NCBI GenBank assembly: GCA_963693285.1
Contig: OY848923.1
Location: 5,598,920 to 5,662,919 of the forward strand
DNA: 64,000 nucleotides
DNA from: Xestospongia muta
Lineage: Eukaryota > Porifera > Demospongiae > Haplosclerida > Petrosiidae
Direction of reading: 5' to 3'
The notes under the pieces were generated by a model that made no database searches, was not told where the DNA came from, and saw only the letters and a program-made list of their open reading frames with translations. Shown here in pieces: positions 4,280 to 45,860 of the stretch (its first letter is position 1; the number at the start of each line of letters is the position of its first letter). Position numbers and translations under genes: made by a program.

Positions 4280-4385
4280 ATGGCTGGTTTCTTTAGAAGA
4301 CTAATATTTGGGGCAGGAGGTAATATTACTAGATGTCATGTATTACCATAAGTAGTAGTAGTGAGTGAAATATCTACACTTGTAG

Positions 4386-4416
<31 letters not shown>

Positions 4417-9116: not shown

Positions 9117-9282
9117 CAATATGATAAATATTTTCCAAATTGTATTTAACTGGTTAATTGGTTTTGGAGAGGCTGTCAAACCAAATTTCATCTATACACT
9201 CTTTCACAGAAGTACATTATATAGTGCATATTATTACAATGGCATATTAGATGATATGCTGATATTTCATTCTTTTTATGTA

Positions 9283-11330
9283 GCAGACACTAGAATTCCA
9301 GCTATACCAGTTAGTCAAGACAGTAGATCTATTGTACCACAAAATATTGTTATGTTGCCAGAGTTAAAGAAGATAGAATTTAAGGAAAAAAGAGAGAAAG
9401 AAGCAACATGATTTACAGAAACATATTACAGCTGCTAAACAAAACATCGATAGGTAAGTTGAAAATTGTTATCATAAAAATGTTTGCTAGTCCACTTTAT
9501 TTATACAGAAAATAATAATGTAAATTGTATACTCACAATTATTTGGAGCATTGTGGTCTCATTGCTAGACATTTGTACTACTTATCAAGTACATCTCTAG
9601 CAAACATACCTTCTAAAGCATTACCTTTGGAAAAGTGGTTTTACAGTTTTACTTTGTATCTCTACATGTAGTATATTAATTGATATGTGTTTTCTGTTAA
9701 TTATTAGTACTCGTAAAAGTCAAAAGAAGGTCAATCCTAAGAAAGTCAAATCTTTTGGTGGTATAGCCACACCCAAACCTCCATCTGAAGCAGCTATGGT
9801 GTTTAAAACATTTCACAATCTAGTGGCGCTAATTTAAGGAGCAGCAAAACAAAGTTTCCTCTCACATTAGGACAAAAGAAAACTAAAACAATAGAACAAG
9901 TTCTTGAAGAACTTGGAGTAGGTAAGTCATATTATATATATTGTATTATTACTAATATCATATTATATATGATATTATTATATTCATTAGAGTAGTACAC
10001 ACACATATATATTATTGTTATTATGTACATGTAGATATACGTCCAATGCCGACTGAACAAGTGTGTCTACAATTTAATGAACTGAGGTAAGATTGTGTCA
10101 TATATATTATCGACTAAATTGGTTGTTAATAATCGCAATAGTCACATACAATAGACATAATATTATTACAATAACCACAAACAATAGACACAATGCTATT
10201 AATAATATACAATAGCCACATACAATACACAAAATGTTATTAATAATATACAATAGCTACAAACAATAGATATGATGTTATGGTATTCATTAGTGGATCA
10301 GATTTACTAGTAGATAAATATTAGGAGCACAAAGTAAGAAAAGACAGGAAGGAATTTTGAAACTCACAGTGATTAATTGTAGTGCTGTTAGTTATATTAT
10401 TATATTTAAGTTATAAATATTAATATTATGGTTGTAGGCGAGGCCTGTACAAGAATGTCATCTGAACAAACTTGCTTCAACTACACTCACTGTCGTATAA
10501 ATGAAAATTTGCCTCAAGACAGTCCTTGCTTTACTATCACAGCTTATAACAGAAGCTATTTATAGCTGTTTATAACTTATCATCATCATTATACATGCTT
10601 ACTTTATTTGTCCAGTCTAAATATAATAGCATAATTAAACATCTGAAATCTCTATTTGTCATTTTAATTAAATCCATGAAAGCTTCACACTCCTTTCCTC
10701 TTTCCATCTTTACTCAATATAGACTCCTGAATATCCTTACATTGACTTGTATTTTCATTTATGATATCTTTTATTTATAGAAATGACTTACTACTATTAC
10801 TAGAACTCAAGTCAGCTTGTGATGTGTGTGACTTTGAACTACAATCTCTTAAGTAAATACATTAATATAATATACATGTACATGTATTATTGATACATGT
10901 AATGTAGACATCGTCATGAAGCACTTCCACCTGATAAACAAAGTAGAATAGTCCTACCAGGTATTGACTTAAATAAAGTAATATTGTTTAATTGTTTTAT
11001 TAATAGATGCTGCTGGTCCATCAACTCCTAAAAAAGTAAGCAGTACAGACCTAGTGTGCCATGTTCTGTTTTATTGTCCATGTCTCTTGTACTTTAGTCC
11101 ACTTTACAGTTTATGGAGGTAGTCAGTCAGGCAGCACAAGGAGTAAGTACTTTATTGCTAGTTAACGTAAATGACTAGATAGTTTTAGATAACACTTTAT
11201 TTTGTAATAAAGTAGTATTTTGGTTGTAGTTTCAATGAGATCTTTTATAAGTTATTGCTTTCTTTTGTTCTTTCAGCGTAAGAGACATACTATAGTATTG
11301 GAGTCAGCTTTAAAGAAAAAGAAAACATAA
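9283..11330 (+). pseudogene. Truncated DMAP1 pseudogene (copy 2)
   Basis: This copies the last eight DMAP1 exons. The first retained exon (9283-9453) has an altered 5' part and a TGA stop (9409-9411) inside the ELKKIE...KEREKK coil. The next exon (9709-9921) has a 1-bp deletion in the stretch encoding FDKSSGAN. Later exons and splice sites are still recognisable and end at the same KKKKT tail. The chromatin-binding N-terminal half is absent. It follows the ROCO Death-domain stop by only about 170 bp; the identical junction at 58.4-58.7 kb shows the truncation predates the block duplication. Confidence 0.75.
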
Positions 11331-11588
11331 CAAAACTACTTTATTTACATAATTCACTTAACAAAGTTAACAATATTATATGTATACATAATTCAGTTAA
11401 TTGATTATTTCATCATTAATTGGTAACTATGCCTCGAGCCAACCTCTTGAGGAAGTACAAAACTGCATGGATACAACTGTGTCATATTGGATTGCTTGAT
11501 TTATAAAGAATTACTTTGTTTAAGAAAGCATGTGACAGTAGTTATTAGTTATGAATTTATTTATTTTCATTACTAAAAGGTGTGGTAG

Positions 11589-12619
11589 ATGTTATCACAT
11601 GTTGTCATAAGGATGAGGCTCTGCAGTTATAACAAGGTTGTGGTTGGAGTACTGTCCAGGAGACAATATGTTACCTTGCCAGAGAAGGGAAGACAATACG
11701 TTTCAGAACTCAATAAGAGGACACAGGCTGTGTTACCAGTTGCTCTGGAACTGTTACAAACCACTCGATACAAAGTGGAGAGTATAAAACAACACACTAA
11801 ATATTTAGAGAGTGAGTTTGAAAGAGCTAGACAAGATCTTAGTGAAGCAACTAAAGATCTTGACAAAACTAAGACTGATTTACAGAACCTTTATTCTCGA
11901 CGGTAACTTGAGTATCGTAAAACAAAATCAAATATTCGTGTTATTCGAGAAATTAATGAGGAAGAGAATGTTTTGAAAGAGAGAGAGGAGAAAGAACAGT
12001 CAAAAGTTGATGAGTTTTTGAAGAGAGAGACAGAACTGTTTGAGTTGACTCGCTCATCAAATGAAACATTATATAAAACAGCACGAAATTATGCAAATCG
12101 TTTTATAGTTCTTGGTATTAGTATTGGTACAGTGCTAAGTTTATGGAAAGCATATCGCTACTTTAAACCTCATGATGTAATGTTCCCTAATGATCCTACT
12201 GACATGTCAGCATTAGTTGATGGTGATTAGATACACGCAATGAGTCTTTAACTAGTACTATGCTTTATGAAGTAAAATGTCAGAGTCAATGTTTGAAAGA
12301 TGTTCAAAAAGATCAGGAGACAATTTTAAAAGATGTGAAGGACATTTTATCTGCTCTTCAAAGTCAGACCAAGTTCTTAGAGAATACATCATCTAGTAAA
12401 AAGAGTCATGACGTATACTCTGATATCAAAGATCTACAAAATGAAGTATGTGTTAACACAAAACTTTTAAAGGACTCACTTCATCAAAGATATATCTGGT
12501 CATCTAATAATAATGTATTCTCTTCTGATTTTGTACTGACAGTTAGTATTGCAATAACTGCTGGTATTGTCAGTGCTACAATACCAGTAGTTGGATATCT
12601 AGTGTATCTTTATAGGTGA
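11589..12619 (+). pseudogene. Broken CCDC51/MITOK-like copy
   Basis: Collinear with the gene at 2936-3973 but interrupted. Where the intact gene reads CGACGTGAAC this copy has CGACGGTAAC, giving a stop (TAA) after codon 105 in the coiled coil. A second lesion, a short deletion near 12224, shifts the frame and gives TAG just after the VDGD residues. The first membrane segment and the C-terminal membrane helix remain readable in separate frames. A Gypsy remnant abuts its 3' flank. Confidence 0.8.
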
Positions 12620-12992
12620 ATGTACTAGCAACTTATTGATTAATTCATTTATAATAACTAAATTATAGAGACAATACTTACTAGTTTACATTGTATGCCC
12701 TTGAAGAGAAAGAAAGTTGTTTTATTACGGGCAATTTTGAGGACTGAATTATCTATATATCCTCCAAATTTAATTTAAAAGAAGACCAATCCTGCCAAAT
12801 ATTTATTTACAGTAATTTTACTTGTTTAATTTTCCATTCATAATTTGAAACAATGACTACATTATTACATGATATACATCAATAAAAAAAGACTAGTACT
12901 TTAGTGGAGACTGTGGCCTATACTATAATTGCGTCAATGAATTGGATACCTACACTAGCTAATTAATAACAAGAATGAAGCTAGTGATGAGA
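12620..12992. other. Intergenic, 3' flank of the duplicated block
   Basis: No gene seen. It is similar, with more divergence, to 61895-62277, and the similarity stops abruptly after the shared string CTAGTGATGAGA, where retroelement sequence begins. Confidence 0.5.
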
Positions 12993-14545: not shown

Positions 14546-14620
14546 GGGCTATTGCCTCACCAGCCCCACCCGCTGTGCCGCCCTTGATATAGTAACCAAT
14601 GCAATGATTTAATTTACTAT

Positions 14621-14660
14621 ACTCTGTTGAAGTTAGCAGCACATTCGTGCAGCAGCACAT
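14621..14660 (+). repeat. MULE left terminal inverted repeat
   Basis: 40 bp, perfectly inverted relative to 31803-31842. Just inside it (to about 14745) are further palindromic copies of the GTGCAGCAGCACAT / ATGTGTTGCTGCAC motif and TGTGCTGCTGCA, which could be transposase-binding sites. Confidence 0.9.
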
Positions 14661-15049
14661 ATTTGTAGGCGGACCTTAAAACCGCGGTATGTGTTGCTGC
14701 ACTTAATGTACATTCCTCATTTGAATGTGCTGCTGCAGAAGCCTAATTAATGTCCCATCACCACACGACACTGCAACAAGGAAACTTGTGTTATTTTGAA
14801 AAGACGTCTGAAGGTCAGTGTTTTTGTTAGAACACGTAAGAAGATTTAGAAGCATATAATTTACAAATGAACTATTTTTCAATAAGTTGCTTAATCTAAA
14901 ATCAATAATTTTGTGTTTATATAGAGGGAAGTTGTCTTTGTAGAAGGCGCTTAACAGCTATTTCGTATGAAAAGTGAAATTTCTCCATTATTAACAAAGT
15001 GAGAACCTACAAGTATAATTCAATGAGGTTATGTCTTGTAATTATTATC

Positions 15050-17159
15050 TGGAATTACCTCTGGCCAGATGATTGATTTCATAAAATCACTTAAATAGAA
15101 TGCAGGTTTTTTTAGACAATCACTCACCAAAGCAAGTAAATAATAATCGATTTCCATTAGCTACATGAAACTTGTATGAAATAATTGTTTGTTAGACTGA
15201 TATTCTCACCATATCATCAAGGTCAATTGGCCAGCCATCATCTAAATACTTCACTTTACCAAAATCACTGCAACATTCTCCATTTATTAATTGTCTGATT
15301 GTGTGCTGTTTGTATATCATAAACACATGATTTTTTAAATTTTAAATGATAATTGTAAACATACTTCATTTGCTTTGATTGTTGTTCTAATGAACCTTCT
15401 TGTAAATATGCTGTCACTGATACAATGATAGAGTATTAGATATAGTATTCACATATATGAATAACATACTGATCTGATTTGTCACGTCTAAAATTCGGAT
15501 AACTTTTAAGGTAAAACTCCTTCCCCCATTTTTGTTTAGTACAAAAGATGTCATCCTTATCTGTTACTGGTTGAGATGTAAATGATGGAAGTAGTATGTC
15601 ATTGTCCTCTAAATCTTCTTCTAAATATCAATAAACATAGAATTTATAGAACTATATGCTTACGATCCATTATATAATTAACTTCATTTTCTCTATCACA
15701 ACCTAAAGTTAACAAAGATTGGAATTACAATCATTCAGTAATCATGTAGTTTATAATGTACCTGGGTTGACATAAGTTTTAATGGTTTCTACGTAATCTA
15801 GAGGAACATTTTCCATATGCACTTCTGCTACTGAACAGCTAGGAATTAACAGACAATGTATTAATATACATTATTTCATGGACAACATACCTTATTTTAA
15901 GGATCCACTTCTTGTAAGTTGTCAGCTATTTTTATAGATAATGTCAACATGTAATAAACAGTCTCTACCTCAAAATTATCCTCATCGTATGGTATTCTGA
16001 GATAACTTGCCACATACTGTTAAATTTAATTATCTGATGTAAATGTTAAATCTTAGCTATGCTTTTCACGTACCTTACATATATATACATTTCTGTACAT
16101 GTCAGGGCATGTGTCCTTATGATTAAATATGTCAGGGTACCCATTTTTGATTAAATCGTTTACCAACCTTCACCACATTAATTTTCCAATTGTTATATCT
16201 TCTTGCTTCCTTCATTACTGTTGCCCTCCACGTAGCAACTGCTTTCCTGTAAGTTTGTCTCAATCATGTGCAGTATCACATGTGAATATACCTGAAAGTT
16301 TCAATGAGTTCATTTGCTTTATCACTTATTTTGTCATGAATAGTATATACCAATACATCCTTATTCTCATGTTGGCTGAACTGTAATAGATAAAGTGATG
16401 ATAGTGCATGTGTTTTATTAGTTTTCACTCACTAGAACCATGTCCTCTTCCAAAATAGGACAAATTATCAGGAATATCTCTCCATATCGTTGGTGTCCAC
16501 TAGACCTCTGTTGTATATATGGTACATAGTCAAGACTTCTTCATTACAAAACTTACTTTCATGTAAAAACATGGATTCACTTTATCAAATTCTGACATGG
16601 ATTTTCTTGTCATGCAAATTTGTAAGTCAGCACTGTTTATGACTTCAACATAACCCAAATCCTTTATAATAGAGTATTGTTCAAACATGACATATTTGAT
16701 TATTTCAATTACTGACTGTATAAAAGGTTTCAAATTTGTTGTTACTAATTGTCTTCAAAACATTTATAAAAAAGTATACTGTCTACATTTATTTGAGTGT
16801 ATTATTAATGATTAGGCATTTGAGATGGACTGTACCTTAGATGAAATAAATTTTTCACTGTTTGTTAATTTTTTTTATGTATTTTAAATTGAGGTTTACA
16901 TCATCCAATGACAACACAGTCAAACTATCGTCAATGGATAATATTGTTTTAAGTGCCAAACCATTGCTCTTATTCAGTGGGATTTTGTGGGCATTAATAA
17001 CTGACATTTGTGATTGCATTGTTTCACTTGTCTCTGTTTTGGTGTTAACTACTAAATAGAACAAACTGGAATGGAATGTTTTGTGTTTAACAACTCACAA
17101 TTAGAGTTAAAGTGTACTGGTGGAAATTCATTATCATCATCGCTGTTGCTTTCAGACAT
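15050..17159 (-). CDS. MULE second gene, unknown function, multi-exon
   Basis: I do not recognise this protein. A convincing first exon begins at ATG 17159 (MSESNSDDDNEFPPVHF, strongly acidic) and splices to an exon encoding TETSETMQSQ...LKTILSIDDSLTVLSLDD (about 17056-16870). Further minus-strand open exons include about 16730-16555 (IIKYVMFEQYSIIKDLGYVEV), 16381-16293 (FSQHENKDVLVYTIHDKISD), about 15620-15475 (KWGKEFYLKSYPNFRRD) and 15330-15210 (IRQLINGECCSDFGKVKYL, DDGWPIDLDDM). The start is only 59 bp from the stop of the upstream transposase-protease gene, an operon-like spacing. Exon borders left of 15475 are uncertain. A homologous set occurs in the deleted MULE at about 39.9-41.98 kb. 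Confidence 0.5.
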
Positions 17160-17217
17160 AGTGTACAAGACTGGTTATCAACAAGAAATGACTTATCTAA
17201 GCATTTTGTGTGAATCA

Positions 17218-18420
17218 CTAACTTTCTTGCTTATGAAGATTATTTAGCTCCAACAAGATCATTGTTCGAGCTATTTGAGCTTCACTCTATGATTTATGTA
17301 ACCTGCCTATGCAAGTAGGCATTTTTTACACTTACTTCTTTAAAATTTAATTTTCTCTTCTCGATGAAACACTTTGCTGCCTGTAAACGTAAATGAACAT
17401 TATACAAGTTAACGAAGTCTTACCATGCAGACAAATACCCCACAATCACAGGCATTACTCTGTGTTGGACTGTTGCACATCTATGGATGTACAAGTACTA
17501 TAAAAATGAATTAGTGTAACATACTTTGGAATCACAGTATCTCCACTCACGAATGGATAGTTTAAACTTTGACAGTCTACACAAATATAGCCTGCTTTTT
17601 TCAAATGTTATCTTATGCAATAATTCCTTACCATATGCTATTAATTGAATGAGGCCGACTATTATGATATGAATCGACTTCATATATGATCTTATCATTT
17701 ACATCAACAATCTGTGTAATTAATGTATCCCAAACATATATTATGTTGATTAAGGCACTGACAATGAGAATCCAATGTTGTGGACGATGAACTGGAAATA
17801 TGATCATGTCTTTCTCTAACAGATTTTTGCCCTAGAATTTATTACTTTTTGTTTAATTTTAAAGTTATAAAATACTTACATATTTTGTGACACCACTAAA
17901 GCCTCTTGCTTTTAATAATGGAAGGAATATGGAGTCGACAACAGCAATATTCCTCTAGTTTTAACAATTTCTGTGACATGCATGTAAAATTATTTGACTT
18001 ACATCCTTTGCTAACAATATTAAGTAATTCATTATTACCTACACAAGTAGATACTATTATATAATATATACAATGATTATATATGTATATGTATATGTAT
18101 ACTTATGTGTGTGTATGTATATATAATAATTTATGAATACATATATATAGTTTACTTCTGCAGTTAGCCACACTCCTGGCTGTAAGGTGTTGTACGGTGC
18201 CTTGATCTCTTTCCAGTCCTTTATCAAATATATAGAATAAATTCTTTGCTAGCAATGCACTTACTATTTCCTTGTCTTCATTAACAACTAATGGACTCTG
18301 ATAGAAATATATTGTAACAGTAAAGCATGCACATTTTAACAACAGACTGACTTCTCTCCATGATAAAATTGGTGGACAATCATCAATCACTTTCAATACG
18401 GTCTATACAAGTTTAGTTAG
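17218..18420 (-). CDS. Ulp1-like (C48) cysteine protease module of the MULE
   Basis: The catalytic set of the Ulp1/SENP family is visible. The N-terminal part has LQPGVWLTAE (about 18165), like the WL-D region of Ulp1. DMIIFPVHRPQHWILIV carries the His-Trp pair (His codon 17775-17777), and VWDTL 16 residues later carries the Asp (17727-17729). SPTQSNACDCGVFVCM supplies the Gln and the catalytic Cys (17442-17444). The terminal exon reads SEAQIARTMILLELNNLHKQES before TAG 17218. Ulp1 enzymes cleave SUMO or related conjugates; ULP1-like genes are known from plant MULEs (KAONASHI). All four catalytic positions are kept here and in the second copy (about 42.04-43.2 kb). Confidence 0.78.
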
Positions 18421-21400
18421 TATAATTAATTACAATATGTATTATGTGATATGAAATAATTTCATACTAACCTCCGACTCATCCGACTTGTATATAGCTA
18501 GACATATATTTCTCTAGAGGCAATCATAATGATGTATTGTTTTCATTAGCTTTACTCACAGAAATATAGTCTATATTTTTGTTGTAATCATAGTTAGTAA
18601 TTATGTTATTGTCATCATATTCAATCCACTCTCCACCAGGTGTTTTCACTAATGCTGTGTCTATTGTTTTTGTTTGTTTTAATATAGGTAACTTATAGCT
18701 TTATAATAACTTACAATGACCTGTATCTACAGATGTTGGACATCCATGATGAACCTACACAGCGACAGGATTAAATGGAAACTTTCATTGTAATCAGTAC
18801 TAACAGCTATTCCAAGTAATCGGTAAGTTCTTGAGGTGTAATCATGTTTGGTAGTATTTTCAATTGTAATTGTCCTATTAGATATAATGTCAGATTGATT
18901 ACATTGCTTACAACTTACTCTTGTAGCAACAATGGCTGGTTTGATTTTTTACTTGAATATGTGTTTCGAGAAACGCCTAGTATCTGTACATCTGGTAGTG
19001 AAGCAACATTTGTGCTAACAGTCATTAGACGTTCATTGCAAAGTATGCATCTGTAGGCTTTATTATGGCATTATTGTCCACAATATATAGCTTACAAATG
19101 ATGGGATGTTTCATCTGAGTAGCAAGATATTTTCTTTCGCCACAATTCTGATATACAGTCTTCTTTTTGTCCAACCACTGAAATTAATAGTATTTTTGTG
19201 TACTCTTCTCCAACATATATCTAATTGTTAATATAAACAACACTGTCATCGTCACAATAACAGACCTCCTTGCAGATAGGACATTGTTTCTTAGTGATTG
19301 TATGTATGTTAAACAGTTTCTGTTTATTAGACAAACATTCTTAGTAGATTACAGTTGTACATTGCTTAAATTTCCATTACCTGCATTGATTGAACACTAA
19401 CAGCATCAATAAGTAATTCTATTCCTTCTATTACATCATTCTGGCCACCAAAAGCTATGTGTGTTGATGTCATCAATGCCTATTAAATTACATAAATCAT
19501 ATCATATTGCCTGAAATAAATGAATACTGTTATCATCTGTGAATTAGCAACATTATCTTCTACTGTGCACTCAATGTTTAAGTATTCTTTTTGGACTGGT
19601 GTTAATTCCACTTGTGGTATACCTATTATAATAATTCATCAATACTTCAAAGTTTGGGGTTTCTAATTACCACATAGATGTTTTGCCAGGGGGGTTACAT
19701 GCAATAACTGGAGGACGCTGTTTATCCAACATAGGTTGCTGGTTTGATTTCCAAAACCCTTGTTGGGTGTATAGCATAACTCCAGTGGCGCTCCAGTCTC
19801 ATAGATCTGTCATATATATACAAACACCTTGTCAAAGATGAGTGTTTATTAACTCACAGGTTTTGATGGTAACAAACAAGGTTGAAAAGATGTTATAATG
19901 ACATCATCATCATCATCATTGTGTTCATCACTCCTAGACAATTTCAACTTTTCACTATCATTAATGACTTCTTGTTTTTCCTGCATTAAAGTGAGTACTT
20001 AGTACATTAAACACTTAATTAATCATACATTGCATTCTACGGACAATGTTTCATCACAGCCTCCCCTATAGAAGATTATAATATGTATTTGTGTAAATAT
20101 CGTTAGTCATCTGACTTTGGTTTGATGGACACTTGAGATAATTTTGTATTGCTAACTTCATCATATTGGGACCTAAGTGAGAAAACTGAAAGTTATCTCT
20201 AAACATATTTCTGTGCATACAGCAATATAAAATCCTTCTTTGGAGGCTTTTGGTAGTGACCCATTAGGTTTTGTCCTGGCTTCTTAGATCTTTTTGACCA
20301 CTTCTCCTCAAGCAGTTTTGTTTTTGGTTTATCTAGCTGTTTCTGAATACATGTATATATATATATTGTATATATAGACAAATAATGTACTTTACCTTTA
20401 GCCTCTGTCTGTCTTTAGTAGAAACATTGTCAATATAAGCCAGCTGCCTTCCAAAGTGAATTGAGTAGTGCTCCTTTAAAAAAAGATCTGGTTGCTTTCT
20501 GTGCTTTGGATGGTCACTTCTTTTCAATATGAGGTTCCAGGCCTCAATTGTTCCAGCAGTTCGATTTCTGCTTGTTGACATATCTCCTGAATTAACACTC
20601 CTCAGTATATTTGTCCAAAAAGGAACCATAGACAACCATTTCCGTTCCATTGTTTCGATCCATTTAGGTTGAAAAATTGGGTTTGGAGGACATGTTTTGT
20701 CAGTACAATACTTCAAACTTGACAACTTTTGCTTAAAAAAAGCAAAGAATGGCTTCTTACATGATGAAAGGATCATTGCTTCTTCTGAATTGGTAGTACT
20801 TTCCAGTATATTCTCTGCTAGCTCTTCGTTAATGTTGTCAATGTTGCTGTCGATTAACTGGGGAACCTCTCCAAGTTTTTTGAAAGTATCTTCAAGCTCA
20901 TTAATTGCACATTGCACTTCATTGTTGACATACTCCGAGCCAAAGATTAGAGCACATCTCTTGAGATTTATTGAAAAAATTTCAATTGATGTAGAATTTA
21001 ACAAAACTGAAAAGCAGTACATTGAGAAGCTGTACTGCTCTTTTATGGCACTAAAGTAATGTAAATATACTGACAAATTGTATGCTGTGATAAACTTACA
21101 ACAATTTTTTCATGTCATACTTGGCACTCTTCATAACATGACTTATGCATGCGTGTACGAAACACTTGTTGAAATCTGAGCTTGTTGAGCACCTGTTTGC
21201 CACACGAAAACAGCGGTGTAAATAATCTGATAATGCCTCCAAGTTAAAAACTCTTAAAAAGCTGAGAAGAAGGACTAGGCTTCTATCAATAATGATGTAC
21301 TTAGGAACAACGATGTTTTGATACCCATACAACAATGCTTCATGTCGTTGGAAGTCTTCAAGAAAATGGGAAATGGCCATTACAGAATGCTCTGTCGAAA

Positions 21401-23803
21401 TAAGTTCAGCCACAGCAACAGGTGGCTGACCTTTCTTTGGGTGTCCAACAACAAGAGCATAGTATAAGGATGTGTTAGATTCATAGTCAGTACCCTTTAA
21501 ACTAATAACTGTACCTGTCGCATCCAAGTACAAAACTTGGTCTTTGGCAAAATTGTGATATATTCTTACTCCTTCCTCAGTAAAGAAAGAAACACTAAAT
21601 GGTTTTGCTACAATCCGTTGAATGTATCCGCAAATGTTTCTTTTGCAGCCAAAGGATTCTGTGATCTCTTTGTCTATAACTTTCAGAGACATAACAAGAT
21701 CCAAGTGTGGAAATTGGTCTCTTCGAAGAACGTGCTGGCTGCTGCCAACCTTGTCCCTCTTTCCTGACTCCAGCTCTGCTAACGTTAAAGACGAAAACTT
21801 TTTGTTATAAAGACAAGATGGTGTTAAGGAAAGTACTTCTTTTTTGGCAATTGTTCTATTGCCTGAGCGTATTTGCCTGGATCGTCTCTCGTCTGTGGCA
21901 TGCTTAACCAAGGGGGATGTAAAATTTATAAAGACATTTAATGTTATTGGAGGATTACTCTGACAAAAGGACATTATCTTGAGATGAAACTGTACAGGAT
22001 AATCAGTAAATGTACACTTTCCTGAACAACGAAATGAATAATGAGATGACTTTCTTGAATGTTTTCTTTTCATCCAACGGTTTTTCATAGCAAAAGAGCA
22101 GTATGGATTGTGAGGAGACAGAATATTGATGATTGGGTTTTGCCAGTCAGTCTTAGTAGATAACTCTGGCCATATACTTGATGGTATAGTAGTCATCACA
22201 TTTGCAGGAACTGAAGCATAAAAGAAACAACTGTTTTGATTCCCTCCCATAGTTGACATCTACATAATAATAGACAATGCTTTTGAGCTTGAGTAGATGC
22301 AGCATATTTTACCTGAAGTTGTCGTTCTGTCCAGTATGCAGGCGAAACAATGAAACTAGGCAACTCTTTCCTTTCCTGTTTTATTGTAATAGTATCCTCT
22401 TAAAAATGAACTTTTCACATACCTGCTGTTCTCCAAATGCCAGTTCAAGAGCTCTCTTTTGTGGATGTTCTATTTTGAAGTTTGTATGTATGTAGCACGT
22501 TTCCAATTTCAAACTTACCTTCTTCATACATAAGTTCATCCATCCCTTTACTAATGCATACTTGACATTTATATGTATCAATGCCATTTGCTAAGACATC
22601 ATCAATACCTACACAATCATAATGATACCAATCTCCACAATAATCACATATGATCATGTCCCTAGCAGGAAAGAAAAAGTTAACATTGAAAAATTATGTA
22701 TACATAATATAAACACACACATATATACCTAGTCTCATTATATCTTTTTTTGCATATGCAGTATATTGTTGTAGAACCCTATTATGTTTTATGTAAGAAA
22801 TGTTACAACAGCGCTTTTAGACTTACAAATAAAGATGCTGTTGAAGAGAGAGGAGTGACAGCATTGGTAGTCTATAAATGTCCAGGTAAACATTTCATGT
22901 CATTAACATAATTATAATTTACTATGGTGTCATGACAGAGAGAGAGGGAAGTTTCTTTTGTGGCAAGAGCCTACATGTTATACAAGTACATGTCAAAGTC
23001 AATGCATCATTTCCTTAATCTTACATGATTGGAATTATGAGTACACGATAATACTGTGTTTCGGATTGAATATGAACATAACTTGTCATCCTATTAAGAA
23101 TGGTTCATGGACAATTTGAACTAGTTTATGACACTTACGGAAAGTTGTTCAAATGTATCATTAATAAGCAATGATGTGTCTGCATGTTTGTGAAGGCCAT
23201 CTTGTGTTGGAGAGTTAGCTTGCATCAGCTCAGTGATAATGTGAGTGTCCTATTTTAAATCGTTAATAACTGCACATGTTGTCTACAGGTCCACTTACTG
23301 TGTTGAGACCTTGTTGGGGTGAAGTAGTAACTTGCGATACCTTAGGGAGAGTATAATCATCCTATATTAAATACTCAACTGTACCTTGTTATTACATGTC
23401 TACTTACCTTGTTGAGACATTGTTGGGGTGAAGTAGTAGCTTGCGATTTATTAGGGAGAATATATCCATCCTATTATATATATATTAACTATATTATGTC
23501 ATCTACAGGTCCACTTACTGTGTCAAGGCCTTGTTGAGGTGAAGTTGCAGTAGCAACAGGAGTAGCTTGATAGTTGGTAATCTATATAATATAGTTGAAG
23601 ATAATGATGTATGTACATTTATATAGAAAGTGGATGTATGTATCATATAAATATGCTATATATCTGTTATCTTACCAGCTTTATAATGTTAGTCCTGAAC
23701 TTGTTTACATTTTTATACCAATGATTGCTTACAGCTTTGATAAGTCTTGGCGATGGATTGGTTTTACCACATGCACTGATTGCGGCCTGGACCCAATAGT
23801 CAT
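17218..23803 (-). CDS. MULE main gene: repeat exons, PHD finger, DDE transposase, zinc finger, Ulp1 protease
   Basis: One long minus-strand gene is inferred because consecutive exons keep phase. From its 5' side: a truncated exon (23803-23676, YWVQAAISACGKTN); three 63-bp exons (23581-23519, 23470-23408, 23361-23299); 23249-23139; 22871-22827 (TTNAVTPLSSTASLF); PHD exons 22778-22729 and 22661-22519; 22469-22423; 22396-22313; transposase exons 22259-21100 and 21050-20396; a basic linker near 20340-20215; a CPICKEVCYCDDD zinc-finger-like exon near 19260; and the Ulp1 exons ending at TAG 17218. The 5' exon is cut by the satellite array; a fuller version (36287-36066) lies in the neighbouring fragment. 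Exons between 20.2 and 18.4 kb are only partly resolved, so two genes are possible. Role: transposition, with a possible chromatin reader and SUMO/ubiquitin-like protease. Confidence 0.7.
20396..22259 (-). CDS. Mutator-type DDE transposase core
   Basis: Two exons (22259-21100 and 21050-20396, intron 49 bp, phase 2) encode about 604 aa without interruption. The MULE-type catalytic pattern is visible: first Asp in VLYLDATGTVISLKG, second Asp in YIIIDRSLVLLLSF, a Cys-x2-His motif (ACISHVMK) after the second Asp, and Glu in NRTAGTIEAWNLILKR, resembling the Mutator TxxxxEsxNxxLK block. The 9-bp target duplication agrees. The upstream exons (22396-22313, 22469-22423) read in phase from the PHD finger, so ATG 22257-22259 is probably an internal Met. 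The deleted element keeps only the second exon, with a frameshift in an A run (A6 versus A7). Confidence 0.82.
22519..22778 (-). other. PHD finger (two exons) fused ahead of the transposase
   Basis: Spliced exons 22778-22729 and 22661-22519 give YCICKKRYNETR followed by DMIICDYCGDWYHYDCVGI and YKCQVC: the C4HC3 ligand order C-x-C, C-x2-C, H-x2-C, C-x2-C, with a Trp just before the His as in histone-tail-binding PHD fingers. PHD fingers usually read H3K4 methylation state; a role in chromatin targeting of insertion is inferred. Confidence 0.8.
23299..23581 (-). repeat. Three tandem 63-bp exons
   Basis: Exons 23581-23519, 23470-23408 and 23361-23299 are each exactly 63 bp, in the same phase, with consensus (D/I)xYxLPxxSQxTTSPQQGLxT. 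The separating introns (48 and 46 bp) are also related, showing exon-plus-intron duplication. In the neighbouring MULE fragment the equivalents are 35971-35909 (63 bp) and 35860-35801 (60 bp, one codon lost). Confidence 0.8.
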
Positions 23804-23805
23804 GT

Positions 23806-26800
23806 ATAAATACTATCGTCAGTTGTTATGATGTGGGTGTGACTTTCTCGCCCACCAATAAGACCATTTATTCATTTTTCAGTACATTTCTTCTTATTGC
23901 TGGCTATTGAGAGTACAGATGTAAATGACAATATGATATTCAAGTGTGTCAAGTTAGTGCAAATACTATCGTCAGTTGTTTTGATGTGGGTGTGTCTTCC
24001 TCGCCCAGCAATAAGACCATTTATTCATTTTTAGTACATTTCCTCTTATTGCTGGCTATAGAGACCTTGAATGTAAGCGACAATATGATATTCAAGTGTG
24101 TCAAGTTAGTACAAATACTATCGTCAGTTGATTTGATGTGGGCGTGTCTTCCTCGCCCAGCAATAAGACCATTTGTTCATTTTTAGTACATTTCCTCTTA
24201 TTGCTGGCTATAGAGACTTTGAATGTAAACGACAACATGATATTCAAGTGTATCAAGTTAGTGCAAATACTATTGTCAGTTGCCTTGATGTGGGTGTGTC
24301 TTCTTCGCCCAGCAATAAGACCATTTATTCATTTTTTAGTACATTTCTTCTTATTGCTGGCTATTGAGAGTACAGATGTAAATGACAATATGATATTCAA
24401 GTGTGTCAAGTTAGTGCAAATACTATCGTCAGTTGTTTTGATGTGGGCGTGTCTTCCTCGCCCAGCAATAAGACCATTTGTTCATTTTTTAGTACATTTC
24501 CTCTTATTGCTGGCTATTGAGACTTTGAATGTAAACGACAACATGATATTCAAGTGTATCAAGTTAGTGCAAATACTATCGTCAGTTGCCTTGATGTGGG
24601 TGTGTCTTCCTCGCCCAGCAATAAGACCATTTGTTCATTTTTTAGTACATTTCCTCTTATTGCTGGCTATAGAGACCTTGAATGTAAGTGACAATACAAT
24701 ATTCAAGTGTGTCAAGTTAGTACAAATACTATCGTCAGTTGTTTTGATGTGGGTGTGTCTTCCTCGCCCAGCAATAAGACCATTTATTCATTTTTTAGTA
24801 CATTTCTTCTTATTGCTGGCTATTGAGAGTACAGATGTAAATGACAATATGATATTCAAGTGTGTCAAGTTCGTGCAAATACTATCGTCAGTTGAGTTGA
24901 TGTGGGCGTGTCTTCCTTGCCCAGCAATAAGACCATTTGTTCATTTTTTAGTACATTTCCTCTTATTGCTGGCTATTGAGACTTTGAATGTAAACGACAA
25001 CATGATATTCAAGTGTATCAAGTTAGTGCAAATACTATCGTCAGTTGCCTTGATGTGGGTGTGTCTTCCTCGCCCAGCAATAAGACCATTTGTTTATTTT
25101 TTAGTACATTTCCTCTTATTGCTGGCTATAGAGACCTTGAATGTAAGCGACAATACAATATTCAAGTGTGTCAAGTTAGTACAAATACTATTGTCAGTTG
25201 TTTTGATGTGGGCGTGTCTTCCTCGCCCAGCAATAAGAACATTTGTTCATTTTTTAGTACATTTCTTCTTATTGCTGGCTATTGAGAGTACAGATGTAAA
25301 TGACAATATGATATTCAAGTGTGTCAAGTTAGTGCAAATACTATCGTCAGTTGTTTTGATGTGGGAGTGTCTTCCTCGCCCAGCAATAAGACCATTTGTT
25401 CATTTTTTAGTACATTTCCTCTTATTGCTGGCTATTGAGACTTTGAATGTAAACGACAACATGATATTCAAGTGTATCAAGTTAGTGCAAATACTATCGT
25501 CAGTTGCCTTGATGTGGGTGTGTCTTCCTCGCCCAGCAATAAGACCATTTGTTTATTTTTTAGTACATTTCCTCTTATTGCTGGCTATAGAGACCTTGAA
25601 TGTAAGCGACAATACAATATTCAAGTGTGTCAAGTTAGTACTAATACTATTGTCAGTTGTTTTGATGTGGGCGTGTCTTCCTCGCCCAGCAATAAGAACA
25701 TTTGTTCATTTTTTAGTACATTTCTTCTTATTGCTGGCTATTGAGAGTACAGATGTAAATGACAATATGATATTCAAGTGTGTCAAGTTAGTGCAAATAC
25801 TATCGTCAGTTGTTTTGATGTGGGAGTGTCTTCCTCGCCCAGCAATAAGACCATTTGTTCATTTTTTAGTACATTTCCTCTTATTGCTGGCTATTGAGAC
25901 TTTGAATGTAAACGACAACATGATATTCAAGTGTATCAAGTTAGTGCAAATACTATCGTCAGTTGCCTTGATGTGGGTGTGTCTTCCTCGCCCAGCAATA
26001 AGACCATTTGTTTATTTTTTAGTACATTTCCTCTTATTGCTGGCTATAGAGACCTTGAATGTAAGCGACAATACAATATTCAAGTGTGTCAAGTTAGTAC
26101 AAATACTATCGTCAGTTGTTTTGATGTGGGTGTGTCTTCCTCGCCCAGCAATAAGACCATTTGTTCTTTTTTTAGTACATTTCTTCTTATTGCTGGCTAT
26201 TGAGAGTACAGATGTAAATGACAATATGATATTCAAGTGTGTCAAGTTAGTACAAATATTATCGTCAGTTGATTTAATGTGGGTGTGTCTTCCTCGCCCA
26301 GCAATAAGACCATTTATTCATTTTTTAATACATTTCTTCTTATTGCTGGCTATTGAGACTACAGATGTAAATGACAATATGATATTCAAGTGTGTCAAGT
26401 TAGTACAAATATTATCGTCAGTTGATTTAATGTGGGTGTGTCTTCCTCGCCCAGCAATAAGACCATTTATTCATTTTTAGTGCATTTCCTCTTATTGCTG
26501 GCTATAGAGACCTTGAATGTAAACGACAATATGATATTCAAGTGTGTCAAGTTAGTACAAATACTATCGTCAGTTGTTTTGATGTGGGAGTGTCTTCCTC
26601 GCCCAGCAATAAGACCATTTGTTCATTTTTTAGTACATTTCCTCTTATTGCTGGCTATTGAGACTTTGAATGTAAACGACAACATAATATTCAAGTGTAT
26701 CAAGTTAGTGCAAATACTATCGTCAGTTGCCTTGATGTGGGTGTGTCTTCCTCGCCCAGCAATAAGACCATTTGTTTATTTTTTAGTACATTTCCTCTTA

Positions 26801-29800
26801 TTGCTGGCTATAGAGACCTTGAATGTAAGCGACAATACAATATTCAAGTGTGTCAAGTTCGTGCAAATACTATCATCAGTTGTTTTGATGTGGGTGTGTC
26901 TTCCTCGCCCAGCAATAAGACCATTTGTTCTTTTTTTAGTACATTTCTTCTTATTGCTGGCTATTGAGAGTACAGATGTAAATGACAATATGATATTCAA
27001 GTGTGTCAAGTTAGTACAAATATTATCGTCAGTTGATTTAATGTGGGTGTGTCTTCCTCGCCCAGCAATAAGACCATTTATTCATTTTTTAATACATTTC
27101 TTCTTATTGCTGGCTATTGAGACTACAGATGTAAATGACAATATGATATTCAAGTGTGTCAAGTTAGTGCAAATACTATCATCAGTTGATTTGATGTGGG
27201 TGTGTCTTCCTCGCCCAGCAATACGACCATTTGTTCATTTTTTAGTACATTTCCTCTTATTGCTGGCTATAGAGACTTTGAATGTAAGTGACAATATGAA
27301 ATTCAAGTGTGTCAAGTTAGTGCAAATACTATCGTCAGTTTTCTTGAATGTGGGTGTGTCTTCCTTGCCCAGCAATAAGACCATTTATTCATTTTTTAGT
27401 ACATTTCTTCTTATTGCTGGCAATAGAGACTTTGAATGTAAATGACAATATGATATTCAAGTGTGTCAAGTTAGTGTAAATACTACTGTCAGTTGATTTG
27501 ATGTGGGCGTGTCTTCTTTGCCCAGCAATAAGACCATTTATTCATTTTTTAGTACATTTCTTCTTATTGCTGGCTATTGAGAGTACAGATGTCAATGACA
27601 ATATGATATTCAAGTGTGTCAAGTTCGTGCAAATACTATCATCAGTTGTTTTGATGTGGGTGTGTCTTCCTCGCCCAGCAATAAGACCATTTGTTCTTTT
27701 TTTAGTACATTTCTTCTTATTGCTGGCTATTGAGAGTACAGATGTAAATGACAATATGATATTCAAGTGTGTCAAGTTAGTACAAATATTATCGTCAGTT
27801 GATTTAATGTGGGTGTGTCTTCCTCGCCCAGCAATAAGACCATTTATTCATTTTTTAATACATTTCTTCTTATTGCTGGCTATTGAGAGTACAGATGTAA
27901 ATGACAATATGATATTCAAGTGTGTCAAGTTAGTACAAATATTATCGTCAGTTGATTTAATGTGGGTGTGTCTTCCTCGCCCAGCAATAAGACCATTTAT
28001 TCATTTTTAGTACATTTCCTCTTATTGCTGGCTATAGAGACCTTGAATGTAAGCGACAATATGATATTCAAGTGTGTCAAGTTAGGACAAATACTATCGT
28101 CAGTTGTTTTGATGTGGGAGTGTCTTCCTCGCCCAGCAATAAGACCATTTGTTCATTTTTTAGTACATTTCCTCTTATTGCTGGCTATTGAGACTTTGAA
28201 TGTAAACGACAACATGATATTCAAGTGTATCAAGTTAGTGCAAATACTATCGTCAGTTGCCTTGATGTGGGTGTGTCTTCCTCGCCCAGCAATAAGACCA
28301 TTTGTTTATTTTTTAGTACATTTCCTCTTATTGCTGGCTATTGAGAGTACAGATGTAAATGACAATATGATATTCAAGTGTGTCAAGTTAGTGCAAATAC
28401 TATCGTCAGTTGTTTTGATGTGGGAGTGTCTTCCTCGCCCAGCAATAAGACCATTTGTTCATTTTTTAGTACATTTCCTCTTATTGCTGGCTATTGAGAC
28501 TTTGAATGTAAACGACAACATGATATTCAAGTGTATCAAGTTAGTGCAAATACTATCGTCAGTTGCCTTGATGTGGGTGTGTCTTCCTCGCCCAGCAATA
28601 AGACCATTTGTTTATTTTTTAGTACATTTCCTCTTATTGCTGGCTATAGAGACATTGAATGTAAGCGACAATACAATATTCAAGTGTGTCAAGTTAGTAC
28701 AAATACTATCGTCAGTTGATTTGATGTGGGTGTGTCTTCCTCGCCCAGCAATAAGACCATTTATTCATTTTTTAGTACATTTCTTCTTATTGCTGGCTAT
28801 TGAGAGTACAGATGTAAATGACAATATGATATTCAAGTGTGTCAAGTTCGTGCAAATACTATCATCAGTTGTTTTGATGTGGGTGTGTCTTCCTCGCCCA
28901 GCAATAAGACCATTTGTTCTTTTTTTAGTACATTTCTTCTTATTGCTGGCTATTGAGAGTACAGATGTAAATGACAATATGATATTCAAGTGTGTCAAGT
29001 TAGTACAAATATTATCGTCAGTTGATTTAATGTGGGTGTGTCTTCCTCGCCCAGCAATAAGACCATTTATTCATTTTTTAATACATTTCTTCTTATTGCT
29101 GGCTATTGAGACTACAGATGTAAAATGACAATATGATATTCAAGTGTGTCAAGTTAGTACAAATATTATCGTCAGTTGATTTAATGTGGGTGTGTCTTCC
29201 TCGCCCAGCAATAAGACCATTTATTCATTTTTAGTGCATTTCCTCTTATTGCTGGCTATAGAGACCTTGAATGTAAACGACAATATGATATTCAAGTGTG
29301 TCAAGTTAGTACAAATACTATCGTCAGTTGTTTTGATGTGGGAGTGTCTTCCTCGCCCAGCAATAAGACCATTTGTTCATTTTTTAGTACATTTCCTCTT
29401 ATTGCTGGCTATTGAGACTTTGAATGTAAACGACAACATAATATTCAAGTGTATCAAGTTAGTGCAAATACTATCGTCAGTTGCCTTGATGTGGGTGTGT
29501 CTTCCTCGCCCAGCAATAAGACCATTTGTTTATTTTTTAGTACATTTCCTCTTATTGCTGGCTATAGAGACCTTGAATGTAAGCGACAATACAATATTCA
29601 AGTGTGTCAAGTTAGTACAAATACTATCGTCAGTTGATTTGATGTGGGTGTGTCTTCCTCGCCCAGCAATAAGACCATTTATTCATTTTTTAGTACATTT
29701 CTTCTTATTGCTGGCTATTGAGAGTACAGATGTAAATGACAATATGATATTCAAGTGTGTCAAGTTCGTGCAAATACTATCATCAGTTGTTTTGATGTGG

Positions 29801-31270
29801 GTGTGTCTTCCTCGCCCAGCAATAAGACCATTTGTTCTTTTTTTAGTACATTTCTTCTTATTGCTGGCTATTGAGAGTACAGATGTAAATGACAATATGA
29901 TATTCAAGTGTGTCAAGTTAGTACAAATATTATCGTCAGTTGATTTAATGTGGGTGTGTCTTCCTCGCCCAGCAATAAGACCATTTATTCATTTTTTAAT
30001 ACATTTCTTCTTATTGCTGGCTATTGAGACTACAGATGTAAATGACAATATGATATTCAAGTGTGTCAAGTTAGTGCAAATACTATCATCAGTTGATTTG
30101 ATGTGGGTGTGTCTTCCTCGCCCAGCAATACGACCATTTGTTCATTTTTTAGTACATTTCCTCTTATTGCTGGCTATAGAGACTTTGAATGTAAGTGACA
30201 ATATGAAATTCAAGTGTGTCAAGTTAGTACAAATACTATCGTCAGTTGTTTTGATGTGGGTGTGTCTTCCTTGCCCAGCAATAAGACCATTTATTCATTT
30301 TTTAGTACATTTCTTCTTATTGCTGGCAATAGAGACTTTGAATGTAAATGACAATATGATATTCAAGTGTGTCAAGTTAGTGTAAATACTACTGTCAGTT
30401 GATTTGATGTGGGCGTGTCTTCTTTGCCCAGCAATAAGACCATTTATTCATTTTTTAGTACATTTCTTCTTATTGCTGGCTATTGAGAGTACAGATGTCA
30501 ATGACAATATGATATTCAAGTGTGTCAAGTTAGTACAAATACTATCGTCAGTTGATTTGATGTGGGTGTGTCTTCCTCGCCCAGCAATAAGACCATTTGT
30601 TCATTTTTTAGTACATTTCCTCTTATTGCTGGCTATAGAGACTTTGAATGTAAGTGACAATACGAAATTCAAGTGTGTCAAGTTAGTGCAAATACTATCG
30701 TCAGTTGTTTTGATGTGGGTGTGTCTTCCTAGCCCAGCAATAAGACCATTTGTTCATTTTTCAGTACATTTCTTCTTATTGCTGGTTATTGAGAGTACAG
30801 ATGTAAATGACAATATGATATTCAAGTATGTCAAGTTAGTGCAAATACTATCGTCAGTTGAGTTGATGTGGGTGTGTCTTCCTCGCCCAGCAATAAGACC
30901 ATTTGTTCATTTTTTAGTACATTTCCTTTTATAGCTGGCTATAGAGACTTTGAATGTAAGTGACAATATGAAATTTAAGTGTGTCAAGTTAGTGCTAATA
31001 CTATCGTCAGTTGAGTTGATGTGGGTGTGTCTTCCTCGCCCAGCAATAAGACCATTTGTTCATTTTTCAATACATTTCTTCTTATTGCTGGCTATTGAGA
31101 GTACAGATGTAAATGACAATACGATATTCAAGTGTGTCAAGTTAGTGCAAATACTATCGTCAGTTGTTTTGATGTGGGTGTGTCTTCCTCGCCCAGCAAT
31201 AAGACCATATGTTCATTATTTAGTACATATCCTTTTAATGCTTGTTATTATGACTTTTTGAATGTAAACT
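23806..31270. repeat. 153-bp tandem array 1 (about 49 units)
   Basis: A unit of about 153 bp is repeated near-perfectly for 7.5 kb. Each unit has GATGTGGGTGTGTCTTCCTC, then CCAGCAATAAGA, a 28-nt spacer with a T run, then TCTTATTGCTGG: 12-bp inverted arms. Higher-order periods are visible: 459 bp (three units) around 25.0-26.2 kb and 2,754 bp (18 units) between 26.4-27.4 and 29.2-30.2 kb. Because 153 is divisible by 3, one plus frame stays open for up to 780 codons, but T5/T6 length changes break it and unit types differ by non-conservative changes (ETLNV versus ESTDV), so I do not call it a gene. It cuts the 5' exon of the MULE gene at its left edge. Confidence 0.92.
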
Positions 31271-31802
31271 GTTGTAATGATCTATATTAAGAAATCACAT
31301 TGAATAATGGTGTCATCTTTGTATATGACAAACCATTATAATTTTATATTTGCATGCAAGAGTGTTAAACTTGTCACTGTGAGGTGAACTTAAACTATCT
31401 GTTTCAATTTAGTAATAAAATTCACGTAAATATTTATAATAACCTAACTTTTTAGACTTGTTTGCAAAAAATCTAGTATAAGGAATTAAGGCCAAGTTTT
31501 GCTGGAGGCCAGTGACTGTAGTGCTAGTTTTATTGATTATTAATGCTAACAATTTCATGCTAAAAATTTTGTTCTTAAAATATAAAAAGTAATTGATTAC
31601 AATTTATTAAACGAAGTATTTTGAAAGGAATTAATTGGCTATCATTTATAATATATTAACTAAATGGATGGAATGTTCTGTTCTACACACAATGTTGTTG
31701 TAAGTTTTCAGTATACAGCGAACAGCAACTCCAGCTCCACCCTATCAAAAATACTTGAAACCACAAATATTTAATAAGGCGTGGTTATCTAGTACCTGAG
31801 GA

Positions 31803-31842
31803 ATGTGCTGCTGCACGAATGTGCTGCTAACTTCAACAGAGT
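31803..31842 (-). repeat. MULE right terminal inverted repeat
   Basis: Perfect inverted partner of 14621-14660, followed directly by the 9-bp target duplication ATTTACTAT. Confidence 0.9.
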
Positions 31843-31851
31843 ATTTACTAT

Positions 31852-35690: not shown

Positions 35691-36065
35691 CAATAAAAAT
35701 TTTCATAAGAACAAAATAGTCAGCATTACCATAAATAGGAAGAGTATAATCATCCTATATTAAATACTTAACTGTACCTTGTTATTACATGTCTACTTAC
35801 CTTGTTGAGACCTTGTTGGGGTGAAGTAGCTTGCGATTTATTAGTGAGAATATATCCATCCTATTATATATATATTAACTATATTATGTCATCTACAGGT
35901 CCACTTACTGTGTCAAAGCCTTGTTTAGGTGAAGTTGCAGTAGCAACAGGAGTAGCTTGATAGTTGGTAATCTATATAATGTAGTTGAAGATAATGATGT
36001 ATGTACATTTATATAGAAAGTGCATGTATGTGTCATATAAATATGTTATATATCTGTTATCTTAC

Positions 36066-36287
36066 CAGCTTTATAATATTAGTCCTGAAGTTGTTTACAT
36101 TTTTATACCAATGATTGCTTACAGCTTTTGTAAGTCTTGGCAATAGATTGGTTTTACCACATGCACTGATTGCAGCCTGAACCCAATAGCCATGTCCTTT
36201 GCAGGACGCTTTTTTGGGTGGAAGCCCATTTAGACAAATGTAATTAGCAAGAGCATTACTGTTAACATGAAACTTCACTTTGGGTGG
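36066..36287 (-). CDS. MULE first-domain exon (untruncated version)
   Basis: Minus-strand exon with good splice sites encoding PPKVKFHVNSNALANYICL and SCKGHGYWVQAAISACGKTN, then SNHWYKNVNNFRTNIIKL, rich in basic and aromatic residues. In the complete element the same exon is cut after its last ~43 codons by the satellite array. Being N-terminal to the PHD finger and transposase, it could be a DNA-binding domain, but I recognise no family. Confidence 0.55.
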
Positions 36288-36299
36288 CTAAAGAAAAAG

Positions 36300-36982
36300 A
36301 ACAGCAATGATTACATGCATGCATTCCTTACCATGCTATCCACTCAGTTATAAGAAACAGGATATTGAAGGTTAGAAAAAGACTCTAAAAGAATTGCTGT
36401 TTCACTAAAAGGACACTCAGAAAGATATATCTCAGTAGAACTGACAAAAGACAACTAAAGTTAGTCCAATTTTATCCCAAGTTTGTCCAATTTATAGACA
36501 TCAATGATGCAACAAATTTCAATTTGTTTGTAGGAATGTAGCAGTGAAATTGTGTTAATGATTCACATGAATAAACTGTTAATTTTGTCCATGTTTAGGA
36601 CCTTAAGTAATAAAAACGGCATGATGAATTAGTGTAAACTAGATGAATACAGACCTCAATTTATTAATATATTGAACAATACACCAGATTGTATGATATT
36701 CAATGTGTTAACACCTATTACAATCAGACCTACTTTATTTCTATAAATGTGCATGCTTGTCAATTGCATTTATGTATAGCACTGCAACTATCATATGTTT
36801 CCAATTAATAGAACAGTTAAAATGAGACAATCATAATTTTAAATGAATGTACTACATGTTGTGCATTGTGTAGGTTATATCTTTGGTTAATTTAGAACAA
36901 CCATATATATATATATTATAAAAAGGCGAATGTTATGTTCTCTCAACTATTCTTGTTATTATTTATGTCTAGTAGTTGTAAA
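36300..36982. other. MULE 5' upstream segment, no gene
   Basis: AT-rich and upstream of the first-domain exon on the minus strand, between it and array 2. This segment is missing from the complete element and might hold the ancestral promoter. Confidence 0.35.
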
Positions 36983-41978: not shown

Positions 41979-42036
41979 AGTGTACAAGACTGGTTATCAA
42001 TAAGAAATAACTTATCTAAGCATTTTGTGTGAATCA

Positions 42037-45855: not shown

Positions 45856-45860
45856 TAATG

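What the first reader, a model, noticed from the sequence alone, without database searches (positions are those of the whole stretch)
14612..31851. A 17 kb animal MULE coding a PHD finger, DDE transposase and Ulp1 protease
Seen: 40-bp perfect TIRs, a 9-bp target duplication (ATTTACTAT), and phase-consistent minus-strand exons giving a C4HC3 PHD finger, a Mutator-type catalytic set (LDAT, IIDRS, C-x2-H, IEAW) and an Ulp1 set (HW, WD, TQSNACDCG). Known: plant KAONASHI MULEs carry ULP1-like genes. Inference: this is a metazoan lineage combining a histone reader and a SUMO-type protease with a transposase, possibly still autonomous. I do not know of a description of this exact combination.
Basis: partly seen in the sequence, partly recalled or inferred. 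Interest (0 to 1): 0.87.

Follow-up and report, generated by a model that had tools for sequence, protein, structure and literature searches.

The report
Sponge jumping gene with two proteases
A large, recently mobile DNA transposon in an animal (most likely sponge) genome carries, in one predicted protein, a histone-reading finger, the cutting enzyme that moves the DNA, and two different enzymes predicted to strip ubiquitin and SUMO tags, which makes it a good test case for how mobile DNA manipulates its host's protein-tagging systems.

Summary
In detail: perfect 40-bp TIRs (14621-14660, 31803-31842), a 9-bp duplication, and minus-strand PHD, D-D-E transposase and Ulp1 exons. The finding does not mention a ubiquitin-specific protease (USP) domain between transposase and Ulp1 (Pfam UCH 6.3e-19), a second gene (443 aa, 17159-14917), or a 7.4-kb, 153-bp-unit minisatellite. 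I read one 37-exon open frame (1476 aa): PHD, WRKY/GCM-like, DDE, USP, Ulp1. It is a multicopy family: 37 TIR matches against 0 in the control; perfect 9-bp duplications at 9 of 11 copies tested. In an older subfamily (about 50% aa identity) one copy keeps PHD, DDE, USP and Ulp1 in order, with pN far below pS; a model from the sponge Ephydatia muelleri has transposase, a USP piece and a gene-B piece in order. So the proteases belong to the transposon. Closest described group by traits: Rehavkus, the PHD-finger, minisatellite-bearing, 9-bp sister of MULEs. New variant of a known kind. No transcript was seen; this copy lacks seven conserved residues and its start exon is unresolved.

The parts
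14612..14620 (.). left 9-bp target-site duplication ATTTACTAT
14621..14660 (+). left 40-bp TIR
   Evidence: 37 genome matches with up to 3 mismatches, 0 in control
14917..17159 (-). gene B, 16 exons in the model, 443 aa, starts MSESNSDDD; function unknown, weak RTC4-like C-terminus
   Evidence: conserved in subfamily 2, dN/dS 0.17 and 0.16; RTC4 E 0.033, 0.01 for its C-terminal part and 0.029 for that of C2:6.53, all below Pfam's cut-off
17218..23786 (-). gene A, 37 exons in the model, 1476 aa, 5' start unresolved
22519..22778 (-). PHD finger (exons 7-8), PHF2/PHF8-like, with Y, Y, M, W at the cage positions (cage positions recalled)
   Evidence: PF00628 3.4e-8; PHF2 2.6e-13
20396..22259 (-). 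transposase (exons 11-12): WRKY/GCM-like N-terminal domain and RNase H core; D at 21522-21524, D at 21285-21287, E at 20543-20545 (arithmetic from the exon table)
18472..19806 (-). USP (peptidase C19) domain, exons 17-26; Cys box NLCWINSVLQ, His/Asp box TGHYTALVK..WIEYDD
   Evidence: PF00443 6.3e-19; PDB USP matches
17218..18402 (-). Ulp1/SENP (peptidase C48) domain, exons 27-37; QHW, EVDS, TQSNACDCG
   Evidence: PF02902 1.3e-20; SENP2 6.6e-20
23275..23545 (.). 109-bp tandem repeat over the small similar exons 2 (part), 3 and 4
23808..31256 (.). minisatellite, 153-bp unit, 48.7 copies, 90% matches
   Evidence: minisatellite matches also in 13 of the 15 stretches compared, i.e. in every one of the same subfamily
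31803..31842 (-). right 40-bp TIR
31843..31851 (.). right 9-bp target-site duplication

Best explanation
A two-gene cut-and-paste DNA transposon of the MULE/IS256 clan, by traits closest to the Rehavkus branch. Gene A encodes one polyprotein: PHD finger, WRKY/GCM-like domain, DDE transposase, USP-type deubiquitinase, Ulp1-type SUMO protease. Shown: ends, 9-bp duplications, copies, domain matches, order, long-term conservation. Inferred: the transposase binds the TIRs, excises the element and inserts it with a 9-bp stagger; the PHD finger holds the complex on H3K4me3-marked chromatin; the two proteases act in cis, removing ubiquitin and SUMO from the transposase and from chromatin or repair proteins at the excision or target site, so that host degradation and SUMO-dependent silencing do not stop transposition. 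Gene B is a conserved accessory protein of unknown role. The confidence covers the anatomy, the kinship and the proteases belonging to the element (lowered from 0.75 on checking, because the profile match to MULEs is weak); for the specific protease mechanism I would say 0.35.
Against: No transcript. Splice sites were chosen to keep the frame open, so phase consistency alone proves little. No Pfam transposase family matches, none of the 95 proteins found by profile at E<=10 carries a Pfam domain, and hhalign against four MULEs has E 0.0094 but a probability of only 4.4% (0.2% against one MULE). Recent copies show no visible constraint: 10.8 against 11.2 substitutions per kb in gene-A exons and introns (window against C1_23.53), whole-gene dN/dS 0.56-0.64, Ulp1 2.52 against C8_1.68 (1 synonymous, 10 nonsynonymous). 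Gene B of C8_1.68 has four frame-breaking indels. No subfamily-2 copy I saw holds everything unbroken: C1:13.27 shows no gene B and a broken transposase frame, C2:6.53 has Ulp1 inverted, C1:9.12 lacks USP/Ulp1. Neither PHD nor Ulp1 was found in P0072. Ulp1 exons lie within 8 kb of 18 of 34 transposase places. Rehavkus sequences could not be compared.
Confidence: 0.72

Rival explanations
1. The proteases are separate proteins: one element, but USP and Ulp1 come from their own transcripts or isoforms rather than one polyprotein.
For: No transcript evidence; exons 14-16, between transposase and USP, gave no alignment with subfamily 2; six deletion derivatives keep the Ulp1 end without most or all of the transposase.
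Against: Open frame through all junctions; same order in subfamily 2; the Ephydatia gene model joins transposase and a USP piece.
Confidence: 0.2
2. Passenger host genes: the transposon recently captured a USP and a SENP gene, as Pack-MULEs do, and they have no role in transposition.
For: MULEs tend to acquire host gene fragments (abstract start of PMC6446971 in the listing); recent copies show little constraint.
Against: USP and Ulp1 kept in order in a subfamily of about 50% aa identity with pN far below pS; USP piece also in Ephydatia. Capture would have to be ancient and then selected.
Confidence: 0.07
3. The protease domains work as maturation proteases that cut the polyprotein itself, as in many viruses.
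For: Polyprotein layout with two cysteine peptidases.
Against: Both families normally cut after ubiquitin or SUMO Gly-Gly tails (established knowledge); no ubiquitin-like domain among the Pfam matches of the 4 gene-A segments scanned (exons 14-16 were not scanned).
Confidence: 0.08

Closest known systems
Rehavkus DNA transposons (Repbase; PMC6446971 Table 1 row and section 8)
   Same: 9-bp TSD, TIR within 26-400 bp, PHD finger in the transposase protein, minisatellite inside the element, animal hosts
   Different: Reported from arthropods and annelids with one ORF; no USP or Ulp1 in the row or section read; minisatellite described before the 3' TIR, here at the 5' side of gene A (3' of gene B in C2:6.53)
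Animal Mutator elements with Ulp1 (hydra, lancelet; cited in PMC2836005)
   Same: Mutator transposase with Ulp1
   Different: No USP mentioned in the passages read; sequences not compared
Ginger1 transposons (PMC2836005)
   Same: Transposase with C-terminal deconjugase; Ginger1-9_HM has Ulp1 and PHD
   Different: Gypsy-integrase type, 4-bp TSD; the paper states either OTU or Ulp1 but not both
Trichomonas XP_001314237 (transposase_11 plus peptidase C19, cited in PMC2836005)
   Same: C19 deubiquitinase joined to a transposase
   Different: Different transposase family, a protist, no Ulp1 or PHD mentioned
Plant KAONASHI MULEs (recalled)
   Same: MULE carrying a ULP1-like gene
   Different: Plant; no PHD or USP that I recall

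Membership tests
Rehavkus | 9-bp target-site duplication | tested here: met
   9 of 11 copies perfect
Rehavkus | TIR of 26-400 bp | tested here: met
   40 bp
Rehavkus | PHD finger in the transposase protein | tested here: met
   one protein by gene model only
Rehavkus | minisatellite before the 3' TIR | tested here: inconclusive
   Minisatellite present but 5' of gene A here; 3' of gene B in C2:6.53
Rehavkus | transposase sequence homologous to Rehavkus-1_HR | not testable with these tools
   Repbase sequences are not held
MULE (canonical) | Pfam PF10551 match | tested here: not met
   No match at E<=1 although the genome has 150 scored PF10551 matches
MULE/IS256 clan | RNase H core with two aspartates on the first and fourth strands | tested here: met
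MULE/IS256 clan | C-x2-H after the second D, in register with MULEs | tested here: inconclusive
   motif present; D, D and C-x2-H align in register, but E 0.0094 with probability 4.4%
KDZ/Zisupton | Pfam PF18758 match | tested here: not met
   No match at E<=1; the genome-wide search was uninformative because no control rang
Ginger1 | 4-bp TSD | tested here: not met
   9 bp
Peptidase C19 (USP) | UCH profile with Cys and His/Asp boxes | tested here: met
   6.3e-19; boxes read in the sequence
Peptidase C48 (Ulp1/SENP) | C48 profile with His, Asp, Gln, Cys | tested here: met
   1.3e-20; aligned to SENP2
Peptidase C19 and C48 | deconjugating activity | not testable with these tools
   needs an assay
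H3K4me3-reading PHD | aromatic cage as in PHF2/PHF8 | tested here: met
   Y, Y, M, W aligned; which residues form the cage is recalled; binding not tested

The most novel reading that the evidence does not exclude
An ancient demosponge transposon lineage evolved a chromatin-targeted dual deconjugase: a PHD finger brings the transposase to H3K4me3-marked promoters, where fused USP and Ulp1 domains erase both ubiquitin and SUMO to defeat degradation and SUMO-dependent silencing. It would be the first transposase known to me that attacks both modifier systems from one polypeptide.
Probability: 0.3. Interest if true: 0.78.

Novelty: new variant of a known kind. Interest (0 to 1): 0.62.

Why it matters
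SUMO proteases recur in unrelated transposons, and the Ginger authors suggested that ubiquitin and SUMO pathways take part in transposition (PMC2836005, passage). An element that keeps a deubiquitinase and a SUMO protease together over long divergence suggests that both activities matter to it, and makes the question testable with one protein. If the filing holds, it also extends Rehavkus-like elements, said to be restricted to insect and annelid hosts (PMC6446971), to sponges.

Tried and rejected
Canonical MULE or KDZ by Pfam: no match. Profile search with the transposase alignment down to E 10: 95 proteins, none with a Pfam domain, so no bridge to annotated MULEs (candidates must share short words). 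Full-length 1476-aa search: 7221 candidates, none at E<=0.001. IMG/VR scan with the transposase alignment: 42 pattern matches, none a relative. Foldseek on PDB gave nothing at E<=0.001; VIA-align showed the ISCth4 and WRKY matches, of modest Z, and parts outside residues 229-384 were barely tested. Foldseek on viral models: one match at E<=0.001, a bracovirus protein. Gene B: no Pfam family above cut-off; best PDB sequence match 0.03. One MULE against the profile gave nothing. An automated TIR/TSD scan of subfamily 2 found nothing because the two ends differ; reading the ends found them in two copies. Start exon of gene A: one ATG frame of 15 or more codons near the right TIR, no support. Papers: in seven searches no listed title or abstract start describes an element with both a USP and an Ulp1 domain; only PMC6446971, PMC2836005, PMC13359780 and PMC4298943 were opened, and those in part. 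Subscription papers and Repbase reports are not held.
Full report
CHECK. The TIRs, the 9-bp duplication and the three named domains are really there. TIRs are 14621-14660 and 31803-31842, 40 of 40 complementary; ATTTACTAT flanks both. The TIR occurs 37 times with up to 3 mismatches in the 158-Mb genome and never in the reversed control. Of 11 copies with both ends in hand, 9 have perfect 9-bp duplications (window; 8 of 10 others). Copies whose two ends I did not hold were not tested.

HOST. The genome has Wnt matches at three loci (the 14 control genomes did not ring), so it is an animal.

ANATOMY. Over two fifths of the element is a 153-bp minisatellite, 23808-31256. On the minus strand I joined 37 exons (23786-17218), all with AG acceptors and GT donors apart from the last exon's end, into 1476 aa. 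Segments of it match PHD (3.4e-8), UCH/USP (6.3e-19) and Ulp1 (1.3e-20); the 605-aa transposase segment matches no Pfam family. By sequence the nearest solved structures are PHF2/PHF8 for the PHD finger (2.6e-13), USPs and SENP2 (6.6e-20). The USP exons are only 40-139 bp long, which makes them easy to miss by eye. Upstream of exon 1 the frame runs into the minisatellite and no start was found. Gene B (17159-14917, 16 exons, 443 aa) lies downstream; only a weak RTC4-like C-terminus was found.

FAMILY AND AGE. I compared 15 fetched stretches with the element; two, the distant subfamily, gave no DNA match. Near-complete copies (C1:23.53, C7:6.64, and C8:1.68, whose outer left end does not align) are 97-99% identical over the part left of the minisatellite, about 93% across it and the right end. 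Six others (C12:1.42, C1:3.56, C13:3.90, C1:19.4, C1:3.48, C2:0.36) are internal deletions that lose PHD and most or all of the transposase and keep gene B and Ulp1 exons; three share a breakpoint at 19634-19636, so a deleted form seems to have moved on. C1:23.53 and C8:1.68 have all gene-A exons without stops and with one 21-bp indel each; C7:6.64 has three indels, one of 360 bp, all multiples of 3, and no stop. Of the 12 intron-A indels in the three, 9 are not multiples of 3; some events are shared, so they are not independent. The ten truncated or older copies carry 1-6 stops in the exons they keep. The 21-bp difference is seven residues missing from the window copy next to or within a stretch conserved in 90% or more of 53 aligned sequences.

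AGAINST CONSTRAINT. Recent copies show equal exon and intron divergence and whole-gene dN/dS 0.56-0.64 against the window on 44-53 changes, with Ulp1 at 2.52 against C8:1.68. This is what neutral divergence after insertion gives; it does not show selection.

FOR CONSTRAINT. A second subfamily (C1:9.12, C2:6.53, C1:13.27, C6:2.33) shares the outer 17 bp of the left TIR, has its own minisatellite (spacing about 142 bp, read from alignment offsets) and, in C1:9.12, a perfect 9-bp duplication. C1:13.27 has N-terminal, PHD, DDE, USP and Ulp1 exons in the same order. Amino-acid identity is 0.48 (DDE), 0.42 (USP), 0.54 (Ulp1), and 0.46 for gene B in C2:6.53; pN 0.29-0.38 against pS 0.66-0.87; dN/dS 0.22-0.23 for Ulp1 and 0.16-0.17 for gene B where dS is not saturated. 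These counts come from aligned stretches only, which favours conserved codons. No subfamily-2 copy seen is whole: C1:13.27 shows no gene B and a broken transposase frame, in C2:6.53 about 1 kb with Ulp1 is inverted, and C1:9.12 lacks the USP/Ulp1 part. Genome-wide, Ulp1 exons lie within 8 kb of 18 of 34 transposase places; I picked the 34 by hand from 65 matches and the 40 Ulp1 loci from 140.

SECOND SPECIES. P0072, an NCBI model from Ephydatia muelleri, carries the transposase (38% over 437 columns), then a USP piece (E 2e-4) and a gene-B piece (E 2e-8; E-values for a comparison with four sequences). Pfam UCH on P0072 is only 0.069, and no PHD or Ulp1 was found in it, so this rests on the pairwise matches.

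KINSHIP. [quoted passage not shown]). The window element meets three of these; the minisatellite is present but on the other side of gene A. I could not compare sequences, so I call it Rehavkus-like. For Ginger1 the authors state either OTU or Ulp1 but not both, list Ginger1-9_HM with Ulp1 and PHD, and cite Ulp1 in hydra and lancelet Mutators and a Trichomonas protein with transposase_11 and C19 (PMC2836005, section 5 and passages). PMC13359780 and PMC4298943: passages only.

HOW IT LIKELY WORKS. Shown: ends, target duplication, copies, domains, order, conservation. From established knowledge: DDE transposases cut and rejoin DNA; USPs remove ubiquitin and Ulp1/SENP proteases remove SUMO; PHF2 binds H3K4me3 nucleosomes at active start sites (start of the abstract of PMC11790891 in the listing; cage residues recalled). 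Inference: the PHD finger steers the complex to open promoters; the proteases protect the transposase and counter SUMO- or ubiquitin-dependent silencing or repair signals locally.

Noticed in passing
window 35736-48456: A second, rearranged copy of the same family: piece of the gene-A 5' side at 35736-36195, arrays 36983-39007 and 45860-47258, left part (14651-21064 equivalent, 96.9%) at 39474-45863, and a degenerate right TIR (9 mismatches) at 48417-48456.
   Followed up: partly
window 737-12992 and 52212-62277: The flanks on both sides of the elements are duplicated at 87-99% identity, including a 349-aa frame and a frame with a weak Roc-like GTPase match (0.0036, below Pfam's cut-off); a local segmental duplication around the insertions.
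   Followed up: no
window 23808-31256: The 153-bp unit is a multiple of 3 without stops in several frames, giving a 782-aa + strand frame; each unit folds around an inverted repeat (AGCAATAAGA / TCTTATTGCT). At least 595 unit matches in the genome; many of the listed ones lie in or beside copies of this family.
   Followed up: partly
G000:C1:23529407-23529446 (L009 108-147): An extra TIR end sits 157 bp outside a complete copy (C1:23.53), with right-end sequence between them: a solo or nested end.
   Followed up: no
C2:6.53 (L026, L032): About 1 kb holding the Ulp1 exons is inverted relative to C1:13.27.
   Followed up: partly
G000:C1:10026991-10027070: Two facing TIR-like ends only 80 bp apart, possibly a very short MITE-like derivative.
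   Followed up: no
genome-wide: 150 scored PF10551 matches: canonical MULEs are abundant in the same genome beside this lineage.
   Followed up: no
window 48811-49488: A Kelch-repeat frame (1.9e-18) just outside the second copy, on the + strand.
   Followed up: no
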